34,500 nucleotides of DNA, taken from NCBI GenBank assembly GCA_944375725.1, contig CALWAZ010000041.1:1-34500 (forward strand). The letters run 5' to 3'. A program made the position numbers and the translations under genes. Positions 16,764 through 32,777 of this stretch are shown piece after piece. How positions within the stretch are numbered: position 1 is the first letter of the stretch; each line of letters opens with the position of its first letter. The notes below the pieces were generated by a model. It had not been told where the DNA came from, did not search any database, and saw only the letters and a program-made list of their open reading frames with translations. Source of the DNA: an uncultured Merdimonas sp. (lineage in GTDB: Bacteria; Bacillota; Clostridia; Lachnospirales; Lachnospiraceae).

Positions 16764-17822
16764 TTAGAGGCCCAGAAGCTTTGCAGCCACTCCGGCCACC
16801 ATGCCCAGGAACGGATTCGTAACGGCCGTCACTACCATAGCTGTGCCGCCCACAGCCGCATTGGCCGCAAACGCTGTCGGGGCATCCAGAACAACCGTCT
16901 TAAAGATACCCAGCACAAACAAAAAGCCGGCGATGGAAGAAGAGGGAACATATCTTCCAATCTTCGGGAGCAGCTTGAAAATCAGAATCAGGCCGATGAC
17001 TGCCATCATAATCACGCCTGCCCATACGGGATGAGGCGCGCTTGCCGTAGCGGAAATGATGGACTCTACCGGAGCCCCTCCAAAGAAAGAAGAGCACATG
17101 TCAGCCACGGAAGAAATCACCGTCAGATGATCCACGTTGTAATTTCCGCTTGCCGCCATGCCCGCTGTGATTCCTCCAAAGGAAATGTTGGAACCGATAT
17201 TCAGGCACACCATGCCCAGAGCGCCCAGAATGACGCTGGAATTGATCGTGAATTTCTGGCGGACAAACTTATCGTCCTCCACCACAATGTTTGATTTCTC
17301 TTTCTTGAAAATTGCGCTTGCGATGCAGGACGCCACCACGGAAATCACAATGGTATATACCAGCGTGTTGGAGCTGTCCTTTGTAAAATAATAGGTAATC
17401 AGAGCCGCCGCCAGAGATACGCCTCCGGAAAGGGCGTCGCTCTTAATCATATCGATAGCCGCCTTTGTCAGGATGATTCCCACGCCGGCCATCATGCCGT
17501 AGGCCACATCCTCACCCACAAAGTTTACAATCTTTGTCAGAAGACCGCATACACCGATAATCGTCATAATCACGCCGCCGATAAAAATCATCGTGCAGCG
17601 TTCCGAGCGGTTCTTTCCTGCCGTTCCCGCATAGGTAATGGTCTCCGCCTGGAATGAAATGGGCGCCACACTCTGGGTCAGCGTATTTCCCGCCACGCCC
17701 ACAAAAAACGCCAGCGCCGTGGGCACAGACGCAAAACCATAGGCAAGAGCCAGAAGTCCCTGGGGCAGTCCGTTCAGAACCACGCCGATGATGGCAAGCA
17801 GGTCTGTTAAAATGTCATTCAT
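16764..17822 (-). CDS. NCS2 family nucleobase permease
   Basis: The 352-residue integral membrane protein should take up a purine or uracil base. It has about ten hydrophobic segments, a GNTLTQSVAPISFQAETIT segment typical of NCS2 domains near the first third, and a second signature FGGAPVESIISAT near 235-248. The ATG at 17822 (MNDILTDLLAI) has the best ribosome binding site (AGGAGGAAGGAG). The frame stays open upstream, and another ATG preceded by AAAGGAG would add 21 residues, so the start carries some doubt. The protein is shorter than usual (about 430 residues). It is the first gene of permease-PRT-S66. Confidence 0.85.
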   Translation of the reverse strand: MNDILTDLLAIIGVVLNGLPQGLLALAYGFASVPTALAFFVGVAGNTLTQSVAPISFQAETITYAGTAGKNRSERCTMIFIGGVIMTIIGVCGLLTKIVNFVGEDVAYGMMAGVGIILTKAAIDMIKSDALSGGVSLAAALITYYFTKDSSNTLVYTIVISVVASCIASAIFKKEKSNIVVEDDKFVRQKFTINSSVILGALGMVCLNIGSNISFGGITAGMAASGNYNVDHLTVISSVADMCSSFFGGAPVESIISATASAPHPVWAGVIMMAVIGLILIFKLLPKIGRYVPSSSIAGFLFVLGIFKTVVLDAPTAFAANAAVGGTAMVVTAVTNPFLGMVAGVAAKLLGL

Positions 17823-17934
17823 AATACTCCTTCCTCCTGTTGTAAGAGATAAAAATTTCCGCATGCCGGAAAGTATCCGGCACATTCTCTGCCGGCTCCT
17901 TTCTGTCACTGCGGAGTGTTAAGATTACGTTAAA

Positions 17935-18123: not shown

Positions 18124-19215
18124 TTAATCCAGATACGTCATCTTCTCCACGCCCTTGATGCCAAGGCCCGGCTCATCAGACACCGTAATCCTCTGCTCAT
18201 CAAATACCGCGCCGCCAAGAATCGGATCCTCACTGCAGAGCACAGGGCCGTCCAGGTCGATCTTGGTGATAATCTTCTTTGCGCAGGCCAGATGAACCGC
18301 CGCGTTTACACTGATCTTTGCTTCCAGCATACAGCCGATCATGCACTCCACGCCGTATACCTCTGCCGCGGACGCAATCTTCAAAGCGTTGTAGAGACCG
18401 CCGCATTTCATCAGCTTGATATTGACCAAATCGGCCGCTCTGGTCTGCATAATGTGAAGAGCATCCTCCGGGGAGAATACACTCTCATCTGCCAGAACCG
18501 GCACATAGGACCGCTCTGTCACATATTTCAGGCCGTCGATGTCGTGAGCCTTGACCGGCTGCTCTACAAATTCGATATCCAGGCCCTTCTCCTGCATCTG
18601 GTTCAGCAGACGGACTGCCTGTTTGGGCTCCCAGCCCTGGTTTGCGTCGATGCGGATGCGGGTATCGTTGCCAATGGCCTGGCGCACTGCGGTCAGTCTG
18701 GCTACATCCAGCTCCGGATGGGCTCCTACCTTGATTTTCAGAGTATCATAGCCCCGGCGTACAGCATCCACCGCGTCCCGGGCCATTTCCTCCGGATCGT
18801 TTACGCTGATGGTAATATCGGTGATGATATGCTTGCGGCTGCCGCCCAGCAGCTTGTAAACCGGAATCTTATACAGCTGTCCGTACAGATCCCAGAGGGC
18901 CATATCCATGGCTGCCTTGGCGCTGGTGTTTTTCACGATACAGCTGTTCAGAGCCTGCATCAGATCCTCGAAATCATCCACGTCCCGGCCCACAACTGTC
19001 TTGATAATATGATCCTGGAGAGCTCCCAAAATCGCTCCTGTGGTATCTCCGGTGATGGCTCCGGTAGGCGGCGCCTCTCCATAGCCTACCGCTCCTGTGT
19101 CGGTATGGACTTCCACAATGATATCCTCTACGCTTGATACAGAGCGCAGCGCCGTCTTAAAGGGCACCCGCAGGGGAACAGAAATCTTCCCCAGTCTCAC
19201 TTCCGTAATCTTCAT
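18124..19215 (-). CDS. dipeptide epimerase (enolase superfamily)
   Basis: The 363-residue enzyme should epimerise the second residue of dipeptides such as L-Ala-D/L-Glu, allowing murein-derived dipeptides to be used. The MLE-subgroup residues are all present: K160 and K162 (LKIKVG), metal ligands D190 (DANQGW), E218 (FVEQP) and D243 (ADES), K267 (NIKLMK), and the dipeptide-contacting aspartate in DLDGP (D322), which separates epimerases of this kind from o-succinylbenzoate synthases. It is the last gene of the DUF819-transglutaminase-Sapep operon, ahead of a strong terminator. Exact dipeptide preference cannot be read. AAAGGAG lies upstream of the ATG at 19215. Confidence 0.93.
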   Translation of the reverse strand: MKITEVRLGKISVPLRVPFKTALRSVSSVEDIIVEVHTDTGAVGYGEAPPTGAITGDTTGAILGALQDHIIKTVVGRDVDDFEDLMQALNSCIVKNTSAKAAMDMALWDLYGQLYKIPVYKLLGGSRKHIITDITISVNDPEEMARDAVDAVRRGYDTLKIKVGAHPELDVARLTAVRQAIGNDTRIRIDANQGWEPKQAVRLLNQMQEKGLDIEFVEQPVKAHDIDGLKYVTERSYVPVLADESVFSPEDALHIMQTRAADLVNIKLMKCGGLYNALKIASAAEVYGVECMIGCMLEAKISVNAAVHLACAKKIITKIDLDGPVLCSEDPILGGAVFDEQRITVSDEPGLGIKGVEKMTYLD

Positions 19216-19335
19216 ATTCTGTCATCTCTCCTTTACTCTTTTATTTTAAAAATCCGTACATTCCCGTCTTTCCGTCAGCGCGGTTCCCGCAGGGCAGGGC
19301 CGGTCCGCACAGAAATCCCGGCGGCAGCTTCCGCG

Positions 19336-20721
19336 TCAGCGGGCCAGCTCATACATGGCCTCAGCCAGAATCTCCGCATTGTCAATCAGACGGTCAAGCT
19401 CCATATATTCATCCGGCTTGTGCTCCCGCACCTCATCTCCCGGGAAAATAGGGCCAAAAGCCAGCGTATTTGGCATCATTTTGGCGTAGGTTCCGCCTCC
19501 GATGCATTTGGGCGCCGCTTCCTGTCCGGTGCAGCGGGCATACACTTCCAGAAGCTTGCTCACCAGCGGGCTGTCCGGCTCCATATAAAGGCTGGCCTTA
19601 TGATTCAGGGCCAACACCTGGAAACCAGTTTCCGCGAAGGCCGCCTCTACCTTCGGGCCGCAGTCCTCGAAGCTTTTTGTGACCGGATAGCGGTAATTCA
19701 GCTTCACAGAAATCTCACATTCCTCTCCCTGCGCGGTTCCCTGTATTACGCCCAGGTTCATGGTCAGGCCGCCGGACACCTCATCCTCCATGGCAATGCC
19801 AAGAGAAGCGCCGTCACATTCCATTCCAATCTTTTCCGCAAGCAGCTTTACCACCCGGGCCAGATCTCCGGAAAGAGGAAGCCGGTTCAGGAATATCATC
19901 AGCCGTCCGATGGCGTTTTCTCCCTCCCAGGGCGTCCCTCCATGGGCGCTCACTCCGGCGGCTTTGATGCGGACGCCGTCCTCCGTCAGCGCGCAGGTGA
20001 TCTTTTCCTCCTGCATGGCCGTAATCTGTTCCGCCATCTCACAGGAACAGGAGAGACGGGCCCACGCTTCGGCCGGAACAATATTGTGAGCCTCTCCTCC
20101 TTCCAGCTCCAGCAGACGGATCTCTCCGCTCTGGCGGAACCTGCAGGCGAAGGTCTCATTCACCAGCCCCTTTTCTCCGTTGATGACCGGATACTCCCCG
20201 TCCGGCGTAAAGCCCATGACCGGGACCTCCCCGCCATGCTTCAGGTAATATTTCATATCGGCGCTGCCGGTTTCTTCATTCAGGCCGAAGATCACCCGGA
20301 CCCGTCTCTTCAGCTTTACGCCTGATTCCTTCAGAGCCAGCAGGGCATACAGCGCCGCCATGGCAGGGCCTTTGTCATCCATGGTTCCCCGGCCGTAGAT
20401 CCTGCCGTCAGCCACCAGTCCCTCATAGGGCGGAACTGTCCAGCCGTCTCCCTCGGGCACCACATCCAGGTGGCAGAGCACTGCCGTCATCTCATCCCCT
20501 TCGCCGTACTCACACCAGCCCGCCTGATTGTCCATATTGTGGACGGAAAAGCCCAGCTTCCGGGCTGTCTCCAGCATATATTCCAGACACTCCTGCACGG
20601 CTTTTCCATAGGGGAATCCGCTGTCATCCTCCGCGTACACACTGGGAATCCGGATGCATCCCTGCAGATCCGCAATCAGATTTTCCTTCTTTTCTTCTAT
20701 CAGTTTCCGAAACTCCAACAA
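19336..20721 (-). CDS. Sapep family M20 dipeptidase
   Basis: The roughly 461-residue cytosolic zinc peptidase should cleave dipeptides, including D-containing ones known for this family. Motifs are CHLDVVPEGDGW (first metal His, general base Asp), GRGTMDDKGP (metal Asp), GLNEETGS (catalytic Glu and metal Glu), FTPDGEYP and a late EHKPDEYM histidine. An in-frame ATG at 20748 exists, but the AAGGAGG at 20728-20734 favours one of two adjacent TTG codons (20721 or 20718), which avoid overlap with the upstream gene. It follows the transglutaminase-like gene almost without a gap and shares its operon with the epimerase. Confidence 0.9.
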   Translation of the reverse strand: MLEFRKLIEEKKENLIADLQGCIRIPSVYAEDDSGFPYGKAVQECLEYMLETARKLGFSVHNMDNQAGWCEYGEGDEMTAVLCHLDVVPEGDGWTVPPYEGLVADGRIYGRGTMDDKGPAMAALYALLALKESGVKLKRRVRVIFGLNEETGSADMKYYLKHGGEVPVMGFTPDGEYPVINGEKGLVNETFACRFRQSGEIRLLELEGGEAHNIVPAEAWARLSCSCEMAEQITAMQEEKITCALTEDGVRIKAAGVSAHGGTPWEGENAIGRLMIFLNRLPLSGDLARVVKLLAEKIGMECDGASLGIAMEDEVSGGLTMNLGVIQGTAQGEECEISVKLNYRYPVTKSFEDCGPKVEAAFAETGFQVLALNHKASLYMEPDSPLVSKLLEVYARCTGQEAAPKCIGGGTYAKMMPNTLAFGPIFPGDEVREHKPDEYMELDRLIDNAEILAEAMYELAR

Positions 20722-20732
20722 ATCACTCCTCC

Positions 20733-22115
20733 TTACAGCTCCAAGCATTCCAGCACCTGCTTGCTGCGCTCAAATTCCTCATATTTCAGTCCCCGGTCCT
20801 CTGTCTCCATCTCGCCTACCTGATTGTCATAAGGATCCGCCCGCCAGTGCTGCTTTTCTATGGTAAAAGGCTCCTGAAAAGCCTGGTTTGCCGTCATGCG
20901 GAAGGGATCGATATTTCCGAAATAGAATCTGCGCCGTTCCTCATCGCCGGCCCGCACCGCGGCAATTCCGTAGGAAGTATCTGCGTACAGCCAGCCGTAA
21001 GGCGCAATATAAAACTGCACCCAGTCATGGGCCCCGCAGAAATCAGGCTCCGCGGTAAGACCGCTCTGCCAGCGGGCCGGAATTCCGGCGCAGCGGCACA
21101 GGGTCAGAAACAGCAGCGCAAACACGCCGCAGTCTCCGGTAAGATTACGGGCACAGTTGTCCGCGATGTTTTCCAGGCTGAAATAGGAAGGCATAAAAGT
21201 ATACGTCATATGCAGCGTAATAAAATCATAAAATCTCCGGGCCTTTTCCAGAGGATCTTCGGCTCCTTCCGTGAGCTTTGCAGCCAGCTCCCGGATATAG
21301 GGTGTAAACAGAATGTGGGGCGCTTCCTCTCCGGTATAAAAATCCGGCTGTTCCCCTTCTGCTTTCATCTGCTCCGTATCCCGGTACACAGCTCTGCGGA
21401 CATAGGAATACCGGACCGTAAACGGATGGTTTTCCTTCATCTCCTCTTCCCAGCAGACCGTGCGCTGCAGAGCGTCTCCCGGCGCGATTTTTCCGCCCGG
21501 CGTCAGCTTCTCAAATGTGATCTCCGTCTGCTCCGGACACTCTGCCGGAATCGGAAGATGCGCCCGGATCTTCATTCCGGGAACAAAGAGGCTGTCTTTT
21601 ATTCTGAGAGAAGCCTCCACACAGATCCGGCGGGAGGCAGAGCCCTCTTCCTTCATCTTCCGGATACAGGTCTTCAGTTTCCCTGTCTCCCGGGACTCCT
21701 TCCCTGCGCTTTCCACGCCTCTCATGGTGACACCCGCCCGGTCCGCGAAGCCCGGCTCCGTCTTGCAGAGTGTTTCGAAAAAGCGGTCGAAAAACCTCAT
21801 CTCTCCATTCTGGTAAATCCAGCCGATTTTCCCGGAATCCACTCTCTCGTCAAATTCTTCTTCCGTAAAATCCGGAATCTTCTCCCGGACCCGCGCAAGG
21901 GCCTCTTCTCTCGTAAAAGGGAAGTCCCCCGGAAGCCTGAGAATCATCTCCCGCTGGGCCGTCAGGCAGTGCCGGAGCGCTTCCGGCGTCTCCGGGCTCT
22001 GAAGGCGTCTGTCGATCAGCCTCACCGCTCCCTCAAAATCTCCCCAGAGTCTGCGGCGGAGAATATCCTCCGGAAGCCCCATGTGCAGATACCGGAAATT
22101 TTCGTTCACATTCAC
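20733..22115 (-). CDS. transglutaminase-like domain protein
   Basis: The 460-residue protein has an intact transglutaminase-like catalytic triad: C329 in TGDCGVFALL, H363 in GAHDWVQF and D379 in YADTSYG. The N-terminal 200 or so residues are a charged, mainly helical region that I do not recognise, followed by a beta-rich part (about 200-270). No signal peptide is visible, so it is probably cytosolic and may act as an amidase, peptidase or cross-linker on small peptides. The start is GTG, set by GGAGG 7 bases upstream. It lies between DUF819 and the Sapep dipeptidase and may help degrade peptides, but that is inference. Confidence 0.85.
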   Translation of the reverse strand: MNVNENFRYLHMGLPEDILRRRLWGDFEGAVRLIDRRLQSPETPEALRHCLTAQREMILRLPGDFPFTREEALARVREKIPDFTEEEFDERVDSGKIGWIYQNGEMRFFDRFFETLCKTEPGFADRAGVTMRGVESAGKESRETGKLKTCIRKMKEEGSASRRICVEASLRIKDSLFVPGMKIRAHLPIPAECPEQTEITFEKLTPGGKIAPGDALQRTVCWEEEMKENHPFTVRYSYVRRAVYRDTEQMKAEGEQPDFYTGEEAPHILFTPYIRELAAKLTEGAEDPLEKARRFYDFITLHMTYTFMPSYFSLENIADNCARNLTGDCGVFALLFLTLCRCAGIPARWQSGLTAEPDFCGAHDWVQFYIAPYGWLYADTSYGIAAVRAGDEERRRFYFGNIDPFRMTANQAFQEPFTIEKQHWRADPYDNQVGEMETEDRGLKYEEFERSKQVLECLEL

Positions 22116-22271: not shown

Positions 22272-23462
22272 TCATAGGAATACCTGCAACAGCGCGCCCA
22301 TTCCCAATCCGCAGAAATTGCCTATGGCCGCGCCCAGAACTCCCATCAGCACGCCGATACCAGCAAAGGAAGCGTCATAGGCTGTAGCCACGATAGGCGC
22401 GGAAGCGGAACCGCCGATATTTGCCAGGGACGCTGTGGAAACCATGCACAGATCCCAGTGGAAAATCTTTGACATAACAAACATAAGCACCACATGTACC
22501 ACCAGAATAAACACACCGTACACAATCCACATGGGAGCGGATACCAGGTCGGTCAGGCTTGCGGTAGATGCCAGCAGGGATACCACTGCGTACAGATAGA
22601 TGCTGGACAGTTCTTCCACTGCGGGGAGCTTGCCCAAGGGCGTCAGTGCGCAGACAAGACCCAGAACTGTAACAAATACTGTTGTACAGGTGCCTGTATC
22701 AAACATAGAGAGACCAATGCTGGAAAGACCGCTGTTCATGGCTCCTCCCACCATCTGAGACAGAGCAGAAACCAGAAGGGAAAGGCCAATCAGGAAAATC
22801 CAGTCCCCGGAGGTCGCTTTCTTTTTCTGATCTTTCTCAATCTCAGCGTTGGCAGCCTGCGCCACCGCGTCCAGCTTGGAGGTATCTGCCTTTACGGCAT
22901 TATTCCACTTGGAAGCGTAGCGGACCGCAAGAAGCAGAAGGGCAATCCATACGGAATAGCAGACTGTATCCAGAGCCAGCGCGCAGCTGTAGGCACCTGA
23001 GTCCACCGGAAGCGCTTCCATCATGGCCGCCATGTTGGCAGAGCCGCCTACCCAGGAAGCATACAGAGCCGACACAGCAGCCCAGGTCTTCTGTCCGCCG
23101 CCCAGCGTGTTCATAAAGATCGGATAGCCGATAAAGAAGCCGATAGCCAGCGTCAGAGAACAGCCCAGGAAAATGGCAATCATCCGTCCGCCCAGTTTCG
23201 CCAGCTTCCGGAAATCACAGCGCAGCAGCATGACAAAGATCATGGCGTACAGCAGATTGTTCTTCAGAGCACCGTATGCAGCGGATACTCCATCCGAGTT
23301 GTAAAAGCCCAGGGTACAGAACACCATATTCAGCACATAGAGCCATACCAGCGGAGGAACTACATTAAAAATTTTCCACTTGGTATACTTTTCCAGCGCC
23401 AGCAGGCCGCCGGCCAGAAACATCAGAAACGCGATGTAAGTAAAACCGTTTGTAATAACCAT
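22272..23462 (-). CDS. DUF819 (YjcL-like) membrane protein
   Basis: The 396-residue protein has about ten or eleven membrane segments, with one hydrophilic central loop near 185-218 (KADTSKLDAVAQAANAEIEK and on). GGSANMAAM and NIGGSASAPIVATAYD form two matching glycine-rich pseudo-repeats in the two halves, suggesting an inverted-repeat transporter. DUF819 members have no settled substrate. Because the following genes act on peptides, a peptide, dipeptide or amino-acid transporter is plausible. The promoter and a leader terminator lie upstream, and GGAGAATGTT precedes the ATG. It is the first gene of the operon. Confidence 0.85.
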   Translation of the reverse strand: MVITNGFTYIAFLMFLAGGLLALEKYTKWKIFNVVPPLVWLYVLNMVFCTLGFYNSDGVSAAYGALKNNLLYAMIFVMLLRCDFRKLAKLGGRMIAIFLGCSLTLAIGFFIGYPIFMNTLGGGQKTWAAVSALYASWVGGSANMAAMMEALPVDSGAYSCALALDTVCYSVWIALLLLAVRYASKWNNAVKADTSKLDAVAQAANAEIEKDQKKKATSGDWIFLIGLSLLVSALSQMVGGAMNSGLSSIGLSMFDTGTCTTVFVTVLGLVCALTPLGKLPAVEELSSIYLYAVVSLLASTASLTDLVSAPMWIVYGVFILVVHVVLMFVMSKIFHWDLCMVSTASLANIGGSASAPIVATAYDASFAGIGVLMGVLGAAIGNFCGLGMGALLQVFL

Positions 23463-23585
23463 AACATTCTCCTTCGTCCCATAATGTAGTAGTGATTAGA
23501 GCCCCTCTCCAGGGGCTGCGAAAAACAGCTCCACCGGGCCGGCCGTCCACGGTTTTCTGGAAGTTTCTTCCTGCCGGATAAGGGC

Positions 23586-23636
23586 AAAAAAAATCACTTA
23601 AAGAAAGTCCCTTTTCTACTGGCTTTAAGTGATTTT
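23586..23636 (-). terminator. leader terminator (attenuator) before the DUF819 operon
   Basis: On the minus strand AAAATCACTTAAAG and CTTTAAGTGATTTT form a 14-bp perfect stem around a 19-base loop, ending in eight U. It lies between the consensus promoter (about 75 bases after the start site) and the DUF819 ATG 124 bases further on. Transcripts should normally stop here, so control by readthrough is expected. A hairpin without U-run (AGCCCCT/AGGGGCT, 23500-23517) lies beyond it. Confidence 0.75.
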
Positions 23637-23719
23637 CTTTACGGTTTTTTAATAAAAAACAGCATATCCGACAAACAGAAATTGCTTTCCGGCTTAACTT
23701 TTGTGTAAATTTTATAACA

Positions 23720-23748
23720 ATTATACCTATTTTTCCACTGATTGTCAA
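23720..23748 (-). promoter_or_regulatory. consensus sigma-A promoter of the DUF819 operon
   Basis: Minus-strand TTGACA, exactly 17 bases, TATAAT. It is a perfect consensus, yet followed by a terminator before the first gene. The 458-base gap 23463-23920 otherwise holds only this promoter, the leader hairpins and the gltD-distal stem. Confidence 0.9.
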
Positions 23749-31969: not shown

Positions 31970-32062
31970 AGCGCAGTGCTAGGGGAGCCTAAGGCTGAGA
32001 AAACACGGGATGTGTTGACCCTCATTACTTGAACCGGTTAATACCGGCGTAAGGAAGCAGCT
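31970..32062 (+). ncRNA. TPP riboswitch (THI element)
   Basis: The conserved core words occur in order: AGGGGAGCC, GGCTGAGA (31993-32000), GACCC, CTTGAACCGGTTAATACCGG and CGTAAGGAAG. P1 would be TGCT paired with AGCA. Thiamine diphosphate binding should lower thiT expression. After it, AATCC and TCCT (32068-32078) can pair with AGGAGGATT (32096-32104), which hides the thiT ribosome binding site; a weaker U-run also follows, so both translational and transcriptional control are possible. Confidence 0.95.
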
Positions 32063-32108
32063 TTTCGAATCCCCTCCTGTGATATTTTCATACAAAGGAG
32101 GATTTTTT

Positions 32109-32777
32109 ATGTCACTTTTTGTCAATCAGGTAACCGATGAATGGGGTACCTCTTACACCCTGACAGGGCTGGGCTACGGCGCTCTGATCGTTCTGATGCT
32201 GGCGCTTCTGCTCCTTGCCTGTTTTCTTTCCGGAGAGAAAAAGATTAAGACAAAGCATCTGGTCTTCTCCGCTGCCGCCATGGCTCTGGCCATGATCACT
32301 TCTTTCCTGAAACTCTTTGACGCTCCCATGGGCGGTTCCGTCACCCTTTTCTCCATGCTGTTCATCTGCTGCATCGGATACTGGTACGGACTGCGGACCG
32401 GTCTTATGACAGGCGTGGCCTACGGCCTGCTGCAGCTGATTTCCGATCCCTATATTATCAGCCTGCCTCAGATGATCACCGATTATCTGCTTGCTTTCGG
32501 CGCCCTCGGACTTTCCGGCCTGTTCTGCAATAAAAAGCACGGCCTGATCAAGGGCTATATCGCCGGTGTTCTGGGCCGTTATTTCTTCGCGTTTCTGTCC
32601 GGCCTGATTTTCTTCGCCTCCTACGCGGAAGGCACAGGCATGAGCGCGCCGGTATATTCTCTTGCCTACAACGGCGCTTATCTGGGACTGGAAGCGCTGA
32701 TCACGATTATTGTTCTGTCGATTCCGGCGGTGAATAAGGCGTTTGTGAAGGTCAAGGAGATGGCCACGGCTTCTTAA
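32109..32777 (+). CDS. thiT: ECF transporter S component ThiT, thiamine uptake
   Basis: This membrane protein binds thiamine for an ECF-type transporter, using shared energising subunits encoded elsewhere. The 222-residue protein begins MSLFVNQVTDEWG; a longer in-frame GTG start at 32079 would lie within the hairpin that hides the ribosome binding site, so the ATG after AAAGGAGG is used. Six membrane segments are predicted. GLMTGVAYGLLQLI and YSLAYNGAYLGLEALI are the characteristic ThiT stretches, including an asparagine and tyrosines known to line the thiamine pocket in related proteins. The TPP riboswitch directly upstream confirms the assignment. Confidence 0.95.
   Translation: MSLFVNQVTDEWGTSYTLTGLGYGALIVLMLALLLLACFLSGEKKIKTKHLVFSAAAMALAMITSFLKLFDAPMGGSVTLFSMLFICCIGYWYGLRTGLMTGVAYGLLQLISDPYIISLPQMITDYLLAFGALGLSGLFCNKKHGLIKGYIAGVLGRYFFAFLSGLIFFASYAEGTGMSAPVYSLAYNGAYLGLEALITIIVLSIPAVNKAFVKVKEMATAS

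What the first reader, a model, noticed from the sequence alone, without database searches (positions are those of the whole stretch)
22272..23748. Consensus promoter followed by a terminator in the leader of the DUF819 peptide operon
A perfect TTGACA-17-TATAAT promoter would yield a transcript that meets a 14-bp stem with an eight-U tail after about 125 nt, still 124 bases before the first gene. A nine-codon ORF (MLFFIKKP, 23665-23639) ends just before the terminator stem, and a GAAA-GCAA-UUUC tetraloop hairpin lies upstream. This arrangement suggests attenuation or a riboswitch. I cannot match it to a known riboswitch class, and the short ORF lacks a good ribosome binding site.
Basis: partly seen in the sequence, partly recalled or inferred. 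Interest (0 to 1): 0.7.

Follow-up and report, generated by a model that had tools for sequence, protein, structure and literature searches.

The report
Attenuated leader with transposon-derived RNA hairpin
The start of this gut bacterium's transporter operon makes an RNA leader with a built-in stop signal, a long-range fold, and next to the first gene a small hairpin that probably came from the end of a mobile element, which suggests that mobile elements can leave RNA control parts behind.

Summary
The promoter (12/12) and terminator are real. The leader is conserved in 7 of 16 genus genomes plus Egerieimonas (terminator weak there); six genus members with DUF819 lack it. A conditional terminator is likely. 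A riboswitch is not supported: no Rfam family at threshold, no upstream segment competing with the terminator, and the nine-codon ORF and tetraloop hairpin are not conserved. A covarying long-range helix (P1, picked after seeing a fold) pairs the 5' leader with bases beyond the terminator, just before a second hairpin, tying promoter and gene into one RNA.

That hairpin (element B, 23519-23486) is the surprise: a 34-nt module about 50 nt before the start codon. Its model matches 59 of 397 Lachnospiraceae and 36 of 391 Clostridia genomes, before unrelated genes. The same module is the left end (bridge-RNA 5' hairpin) of IS110 elements that insert at Shine-Dalgarno sites. Of 99 copies, 40 show no IS (8 DUF819 leaders, 1 chance match). 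In DUF819 leaders B stays 82% identical while the stretch before it falls to 33%. Best reading: an IS110 end domesticated as a 5' UTR part. Its function is inferred; no expression data exist here.

The parts
23720..23748 (-). sigma-70 promoter TTGACA-17-TATAAT
   Evidence: 12/12 in all 8 leaders
23683..23691 (-). P1 5' strand CGGAAAGCA of the long-range helix
23665..23675 (-). inner long-range helix 5' strand UUUGUCGGAUA (window)
23644..23660 (-). small A/U hairpin P2 (GUUUUUU-AUU-AAAAAAC)
23639..23665 (-). nine-codon ORF MLFFIKKP; not conserved, no SD: probably not a leader peptide
23586..23640 (-). intrinsic terminator, stem plus U8
23570..23580 (-). inner long-range helix 3' strand UAUCCGGCAGG
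23519..23527 (-). P1 3' strand UGUUUUUCG, ending next to the element B hairpin
23486..23519 (-). element B: hairpin AGCCCCU-GGAG-AGGGGCU (23517-23500) plus ACUACUAC (23493-23486)
   Evidence: pattern match; R1 match 50.3 bits, but this copy was one of the 27 sequences the model was built from
23469..23485 (-). ATTATGGGACG-AAGGAG: Shine-Dalgarno sequence and possible relic of the IS110 left terminus (TATAATACG|AGGAG)
22272..23462 (-). first gene, DUF819 membrane protein
   Evidence: PF05684 6e-126
18124..22115 (-). following genes: transglutaminase-core protein, PepV-like M20 dipeptidase, enolase-superfamily protein whose best NCBIfam model (below cut-off) is L-Ala-D/L-Glu epimerase

Best explanation
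This is a structured 5' leader with two layers. (1) Transcription starts near 23713 and meets a strong intrinsic terminator after about 125 nt; some transcripts read through (inferred). In read-through RNA the 5' part pairs across the terminator with bases just before a second hairpin (P1), so promoter, terminator and gene are one unit: a conditional or partial attenuator. (2) That second hairpin, element B, descends from the left end (bridge-RNA 5' stem-loop plus GTAGTAGT) of an IS110-type element that once inserted at the operon's Shine-Dalgarno site. The rest of the IS is gone; the hairpin and its spacing to the start codon were kept. Shown by comparison: conservation, covariation, identity of B with IS110 ends. 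Inferred: read-through, the signal, the direction IS to host, and that B acts on translation initiation (for example as a standby or insulating hairpin with an SD-like GGAG loop) rather than on the terminator, which it follows by about 67 nt.
For: Promoter 12/12 in 8 of 8 leaders of the clade, strong terminator in 7. Mean pairwise identity, gaps counted as differences: B 0.82, SD 0.89, TSS-terminator 0.65, terminator 0.64, promoter 0.68, but 0.33 between terminator and B and 0.39 upstream. In a list of all helices of 7 bp or more between pre- and post-terminator stretches, P1 ranks first in 7 leaders and second in the window, its 3' strand always ending within 2 nt of B; shuffles as good: 28, 7, 1, 1, 5, 18, 8, 6 of 300. 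P1 pair count on 7 distinct rows: 8 double-change cells against 2.3 shuffled, 0 of 500 (helix chosen). B hairpin: 95.6% of cells paired against 83.3% shuffled, 21 double-change cells against 7.0. In IS110 copies B lies inside the repeated unit: in three genomes 6, 4 and 4 copies share it and diverge 2-4 nt outside CTCG. 38 of 48 IS110 left flanks have a start codon 6-30 nt on (ATG 32) against 527 (ATG 244) of 2400 random positions. The guide block matches its own flank at 6.75 of 10 positions against 5.26 shuffled, 0 of 1000 (40 non-independent copies). Called starts of B-only copies: 33 of 36 at 42-60 nt (includes 8 DUF819 leaders and one chance match).
Against: Six of 13 genus members with a close DUF819 lack leader and B. 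P1 is absent from the minimum-energy fold of the window RNA, which shows only the inner helix, and for the window alone P1 is weak (28 of 300). P1's 3' strand follows the terminator, so P1 cannot control it. No effector, no expression data. B-only copies were found by searches that required the hairpin, so their sharp borders are partly ascertainment; the DUF819 clade, collected by protein and by leader DNA, is less affected. The intermediate decay stages are thin: 11 of the 14 copies with only a bridge-RNA signature are cut by a contig end, so their transposase may simply be missing from the sequence. The IS-terminus likeness in DUF819 leaders ranges from 9 of 10 (G014) to 5 of 10 (Egerieimonas). 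Other DUF819 lineages with a terminator show no comparable helix beyond chance in 5 of 6; L061 is borderline (24 of 200).
Confidence: 0.47

Rival explanations
1. Classical riboswitch or peptide-coded attenuator: an aptamer or a translated leader peptide switches the terminator on and off through an antiterminator.
For: Promoter-leader-terminator-gene order; conserved leader; U-tract terminator; covarying helix P1.
Against: No Rfam family at gathering level; upstream-to-terminator-arm pairing not better than most shuffles in 7 of 7 leaders; ORF not conserved and without SD; leaders of other DUF819 lineages with a terminator look unrelated by eye and show no comparable helix in 5 of 6.
Confidence: 0.15
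2. The 125-nt RNA is a separate small-RNA gene and DUF819 is transcribed from elsewhere.
For: Strong terminator; leader region conserved as a block.
Against: No promoter of 9/12 or better between terminator and gene; the covarying helix spans the terminator and joins both parts in one RNA.
Confidence: 0.15
3. Element B is an old host 5' UTR element that an IS110 lineage captured, rather than an IS end that hosts domesticated.
For: Some IS110 relatives have the same left-end layout with another 5' hairpin (L320, L321, L344), so B is not obligatory for the IS. B precedes Flp pilin genes in two genera and xdhA-like genes in two families (Pfam for L259; L399 read from its sequence). Few uncut intermediate decay stages exist.
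Against: Copies range from complete IS (27) through transposase fragments (6) to bare B. A variant of the hairpin with arms GUUC/GAAC is seen by eye in IS110 left ends of three other families (L324-L326). B was gained without an IS inside one genus before pheS, in 3 of 18 readable species. Downstream genes are unrelated.
Confidence: 0.3
4. Element B is a CsrA-type binding site (GGA in a hairpin loop plus GGA in the SD).
For: Loop UGGAGA and SD with GGA.
Against: csrA found in 8 of 24 genomes tested, 23 of which carry B; G238 (one contig, 100% complete, six B copies) has none.
Confidence: 0.03

Closest known systems
IS110 family left end / bridge RNA (IS621; PMC11208160, passages read) and seekRNA (PMC11187229, passages read)
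   Same: DEDD transposase with a long non-coding region upstream, 5' stem-loop then target-binding loop, CT core, guide that resembles the target flank; element B lies where such elements in Clostridia have the 5' stem-loop.
   Different: In the window no transposase, bridge-RNA loops or right end were found; B is read in the opposite sense as part of a host 5' UTR. Shine-Dalgarno targeting was not seen in the passages read or in the listings.
Intrinsic-terminator attenuators of Firmicutes leaders (recalled)
   Same: Promoter, structured leader, terminator before the first gene.
   Different: No antiterminator competing with the terminator was found; the conserved long-range helix can form only after read-through.
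Domesticated transposon ends and REP-type palindromes used as RNA or DNA control parts (recalled; REP targeting by IS621 seen in PMC11208160 passages)
   Same: Short palindrome from a mobile source kept between genes; IS110 elements target repeated short sites.
   Different: Fixed distance (about 50 nt) to start codons, gene-sense orientation, SD at its edge.

Membership tests
Intrinsic (rho-independent) terminator | stable stem followed at once by a U tract | tested here: met
   stem plus U8, -19.1 kcal/mol for the hairpin; kept in 7 genus leaders, weak in Egerieimonas
Known riboswitch class | match to an Rfam riboswitch model | tested here: not met
   none at gathering level in the leader; the E-value search gave 7 sub-threshold matches, none to a riboswitch class
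Transcriptional riboswitch by mechanism | mutually exclusive antiterminator | tested here: not met
   184, 171, 42, 61, 168, 165, 43 of 200 shuffles as good in 7 leaders; only simple duplexes were tested
Transcriptional riboswitch by mechanism | ligand-dependent change in termination | not testable with these tools
   needs in vitro transcription
Leader-peptide attenuator | conserved translated ORF before the terminator | tested here: not met
IS110 left end (for element B) | hairpin with UUGGAGAG loop region and ACUACUAC spacing | tested here: met
   pattern match in the window. R1 gives 50.3 bits, but the window copy was in the model's alignment; orthologues not in it (G010, G015) score 48.2 bits
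IS110 left end (for element B) | IS terminus TATAATACG before the SD | tested here: inconclusive
   9 of 10 in G014, 7 of 10 in the window, 5 of 10 in Egerieimonas
IS110 left end (for element B) | bridge-RNA loops and DEDD transposase adjacent | tested here: not met
   none in the 1.1-2.3 kb upstream of B examined in the 8 DUF819 loci
CsrA-controlled leader | csrA in the genomes that carry the element | tested here: not met
   8 of 24 genomes; none found in G000, which is 85% complete

The most novel reading that the evidence does not exclude
A group of IS110 elements uses its guide RNA to insert at Shine-Dalgarno sequences and carries at its outward left end an RNA module that lets or regulates translation of the gene it lands on. 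When the element is lost the module stays behind as a ready-made 5' UTR control part. This has happened many times in Clostridia, and in the DUF819 operon the part has been wired into a larger attenuated leader by a long-range helix.
Probability: 0.33. Interest if true: 0.8.

Novelty: new variant of a known kind. Interest (0 to 1): 0.6.

Why it matters
If true, it gives a traceable route by which an RNA-guided transposon seeds cis-regulatory RNA in front of genes: target choice (Shine-Dalgarno sites), the delivered part (hairpin plus ACUACUAC) and its retention without the element can be read in present genomes. It would also give IS110 guide targeting a biological sense in gut Clostridia, and supply a natural test set for what the module does to expression. 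For the DUF819 operon, probably peptide or murein-peptide use, it replaces a vague riboswitch guess with a defined leader: attenuator, long-range helix and IS-derived hairpin.

Tried and rejected
Riboswitch by Rfam: no family at threshold. Leader peptide: rejected. Antiterminator pairing: not found. CsrA: rejected. Element B on plasmids: none. Phage records: 2, both unannotated, one strong (93% covered, 92.7% identity) and one weak; viral contigs: 10 stretches. Empty-site test for the G010 copy L172: the locus was not found in its genus mates apart from a 42-nt B match in G004, so uninformative. B as an outward sigma-70 promoter: the -10-like TATAAT at the IS end lies just before the SD, so a transcript would start inside the SD; judged by eye, not pursued. 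P1-like helices in other DUF819 lineages: shuffles as good L059 177, L061 24, L065 97, L067 187, L073 109, L085 75 of 200. One search aligned a wrong-strand sequence and was not used. In one search one B-only row (L083) and one bridge-RNA row (L165) are chance matches, judged by eye; they are counted in the totals given. The guide test used a fixed register chosen after seeing examples, and the strands were cut by hand from the helix seen.

Full report
Observation. The minus strand of the window carries a perfect TTGACA-17-TATAAT promoter at 23748-23720, the only perfect one in 34.5 kb and not expected by chance (0 of 200 Markov-shuffled windows). About 125 nt after the inferred start lies a long hairpin with a U8 tail (23640-23586). 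The first gene, a DUF819 membrane protein (PF05684), starts 124 nt further on. The next genes encode a transglutaminase-core protein, a PepV-like dipeptidase and an enolase-superfamily protein whose best NCBIfam model, below its cut-off, is L-Ala-D/L-Glu epimerase, in keeping with peptide or murein-peptide use.

Conservation. The window lies in a Lachnospiraceae genome (G000, 85% complete). A DNA search of 98 relatives found the leader in G014, G010, G015, G003 and G009 and, in G001, the part from element B onwards. A protein search found close DUF819 orthologues (72% identity or more) in 13 of 16 genus genomes. Seven of them, plus Egerieimonas (L060), have a 12/12 promoter, a terminator (weak in Egerieimonas) and the element described below; the other six have a promoter about 96 nt before the gene, no terminator and no element B. 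Of 91 upstream regions scanned, which include duplicates of the same genomes, a promoter-terminator-gene order outside this clade also appears in L059, L061, L065, L067 and L073/L131, and weakly in L066, L085 and L122, with leader sequence that looks unrelated.

What the leader is not. Rfam has no match at gathering level; below it there are seven matches, none to a riboswitch class. The short ORF is 8, 13, 5, 5, 21 and 21 codons long in six genus genomes, has no counterpart at that place in G001 and Egerieimonas, and no Shine-Dalgarno sequence was found for it. No upstream segment pairs with the terminator's 5' arm clearly better than shuffled sequence: 184, 171, 42, 61, 168, 165 and 43 of 200 shuffles were as good in seven leaders. 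A mutually exclusive antiterminator of the usual riboswitch type is therefore not supported, though only simple duplexes were tested.

A helix across the terminator. RNAalifold on the 8 leaders proposed a helix between the 5' leader and bases just before the second hairpin. A list of all helices of 7 bp or more between the stretch before and the stretch after the terminator puts this helix first in seven leaders and second in the window, its 3' strand ending within 2 nt of the second hairpin every time; shuffled 5' stretches did as well in 28, 7, 1, 1, 5, 18, 8 and 6 of 300. In the window it is CGGAAAGCA (23691-23683) with UGUUUUUCG (23527-23519). The sequence is replaced but the pairing kept in G001 (GAAAAGUG/CGCUUUUC) and Egerieimonas (AAAACACCUG/UGGGUGUUUU). 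Pair counts: 93.7% of cells paired against 78.8% shuffled, 8 double changes against 2.3, none of 500 shuffles reaching either (seven distinct rows cut by hand). Duplex energies against shuffles: 42, 7, 4, 8, 0, 1, 0 and 13 of 500 as good; native partners -20.8 against -15.8 kcal/mol for swapped ones among five leaders. The leaders are related, so these are not independent tests. Against it: the window's own minimum-energy fold shows only an inner helix (23675-23665 with 23580-23570). Because its 3' strand follows the terminator, P1 cannot decide termination, but it argues that read-through RNA is a functional product and that promoter and gene belong together.

Element B. Just before the Shine-Dalgarno sequence all 8 leaders keep a hairpin and a tail: in the window AGCCCCU-GGAG-AGGGGCU then CUAAUCACUACUAC (23519-23486). 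Mean pairwise identity there is 0.82, against 0.33 for the 64 nt between terminator and B, gaps counted as differences. A pattern for it matched 41 of 299 Lachnospiraceae genomes, often several times; by my count the reversed control pattern matched 12. From 27 aligned copies (26 distinct; A3), 95.6% of cells pair against 83.3% shuffled, with 21 double changes against 7.0. Model R1, built from these and so including the window copy, matches 12 of 61 relatives at E 0.01 (0 of 24 from other families of the order), 59 of 397 Lachnospiraceae genomes and 36 of 391 genomes of the class, two of them Lachnospiraceae, at E 0.001. The window genome has one match. Rfam has no family at gathering level at the B sites of 20 loci (the only hit was a tRNA).

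Its source. Among 99 non-redundant copies in the sequences then held, 27 had a full IS110 transposase upstream in opposite orientation, 6 a fragment, 14 only bridge-RNA signatures (11 of these cut by a contig end), 12 were at contig edges and 40 had no IS trace in at least 1.08 kb (8 of the 40 are the DUF819 leaders, one is a chance match). The genes behind B-only copies are unrelated: 21 of 27 scanned had a Pfam match, among them pheS, a GatA-like amidase, Flp pilin twice, a GerA protein, cas1, nitroreductase, ABC transporters and a restriction subunit. Thirteen B-only copies begin 4-83 nt after the end of a long same-strand frame. In G238, G197 and G375 the IS units (about 1.57-1.64 kb) are alike from CTCG inward, B included, and the flanks diverge 2-4 nt outside. 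So B is the left end of the IS, at the place where IS621's bridge RNA has its 5' stem-loop (PMC11208160, passages). Of 7 relatives in viral contigs, L315-L319 carry B and L320 and L321 have the same layout with another hairpin. Of 25 class-wide loci printed, 5 passed the B pattern, L324-L326 show by eye variant arms GUUC/GAAC, L323 and its copies keep only GTAGTAG, L344 has another hairpin, and the rest, mostly more distant, show no B. These IS110s insert at Shine-Dalgarno sequences: 38 of 48 left flanks have a start codon 6-30 nt on, ATG in 32, against 527 and 244 of 2400 random positions, and the variable guide block matches its own flank better than others (6.75 against 5.26 of 10, 0 of 1000 shuffles).

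Gain and retention. In the genus of G388 (22 genomes), B precedes pheS in 3 species and is absent in 15; two loci could not be read, one genome matched without a locus and one did not match. Where present it follows what looks like the host promoter, with no IS left. B-only copies lie 42-60 nt before the called start in 33 of 36 cases. In the class-wide set 18 of 35 copies were B-only, among them one before the same lipoprotein-like gene in three genomes of one genus (L381-L383) and an xdhA-like gene in a second family. Because these were found through the hairpin, their sharp limits are partly ascertainment; the DUF819 clade, collected by its protein, is the least biased case.

Mechanism. Most likely the leader is a partial or conditional attenuator whose read-through RNA folds through P1 onto hairpin B, and B acts on translation initiation. 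The first step is supported by comparison, the second is inference from position, orientation and occurrence inside operons. CsrA is excluded as a general partner (csrA in 8 of 24 genomes tested, 23 of which carry B). Literature searches listed no paper whose title or shown abstract start describes SD-targeting IS110 elements or such leaders; one search listed 20 of 35 papers and three of four. Only passages of PMC11208160 and PMC11187229 were read.

Noticed in passing
window 31971-32777 (+): TPP riboswitch (RF00059, 67.9 bits) directly before a YuaJ-type thiamine transporter: ordinary.
   Followed up: yes
L199-L204, L195-L198, L275-L278: IS110 elements whose guide block resembles Shine-Dalgarno sequences and whose left end abuts such sites before unrelated genes; several copies per genome.
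   Followed up: partly
L038-L043 upstream of DUF819: Six genus members have a short leader with TTGCTTGTTTTACAA or a variant of it right after the promoter, possibly an operator.
   Followed up: no
L059, L061, L065, L067, L073: DUF819 leaders of unrelated sequence also place a strong terminator about 95-140 nt after the -35 box, so attenuation of this gene may have arisen more than once.
   Followed up: partly
window 16764-17909 (-): 381-aa protein in the operon region without Pfam or NCBIfam match.
   Followed up: no
L139, L160: Element B lies between a preceding same-strand gene (read by eye as tadC) and an Flp pilin gene in two different genera.
   Followed up: partly
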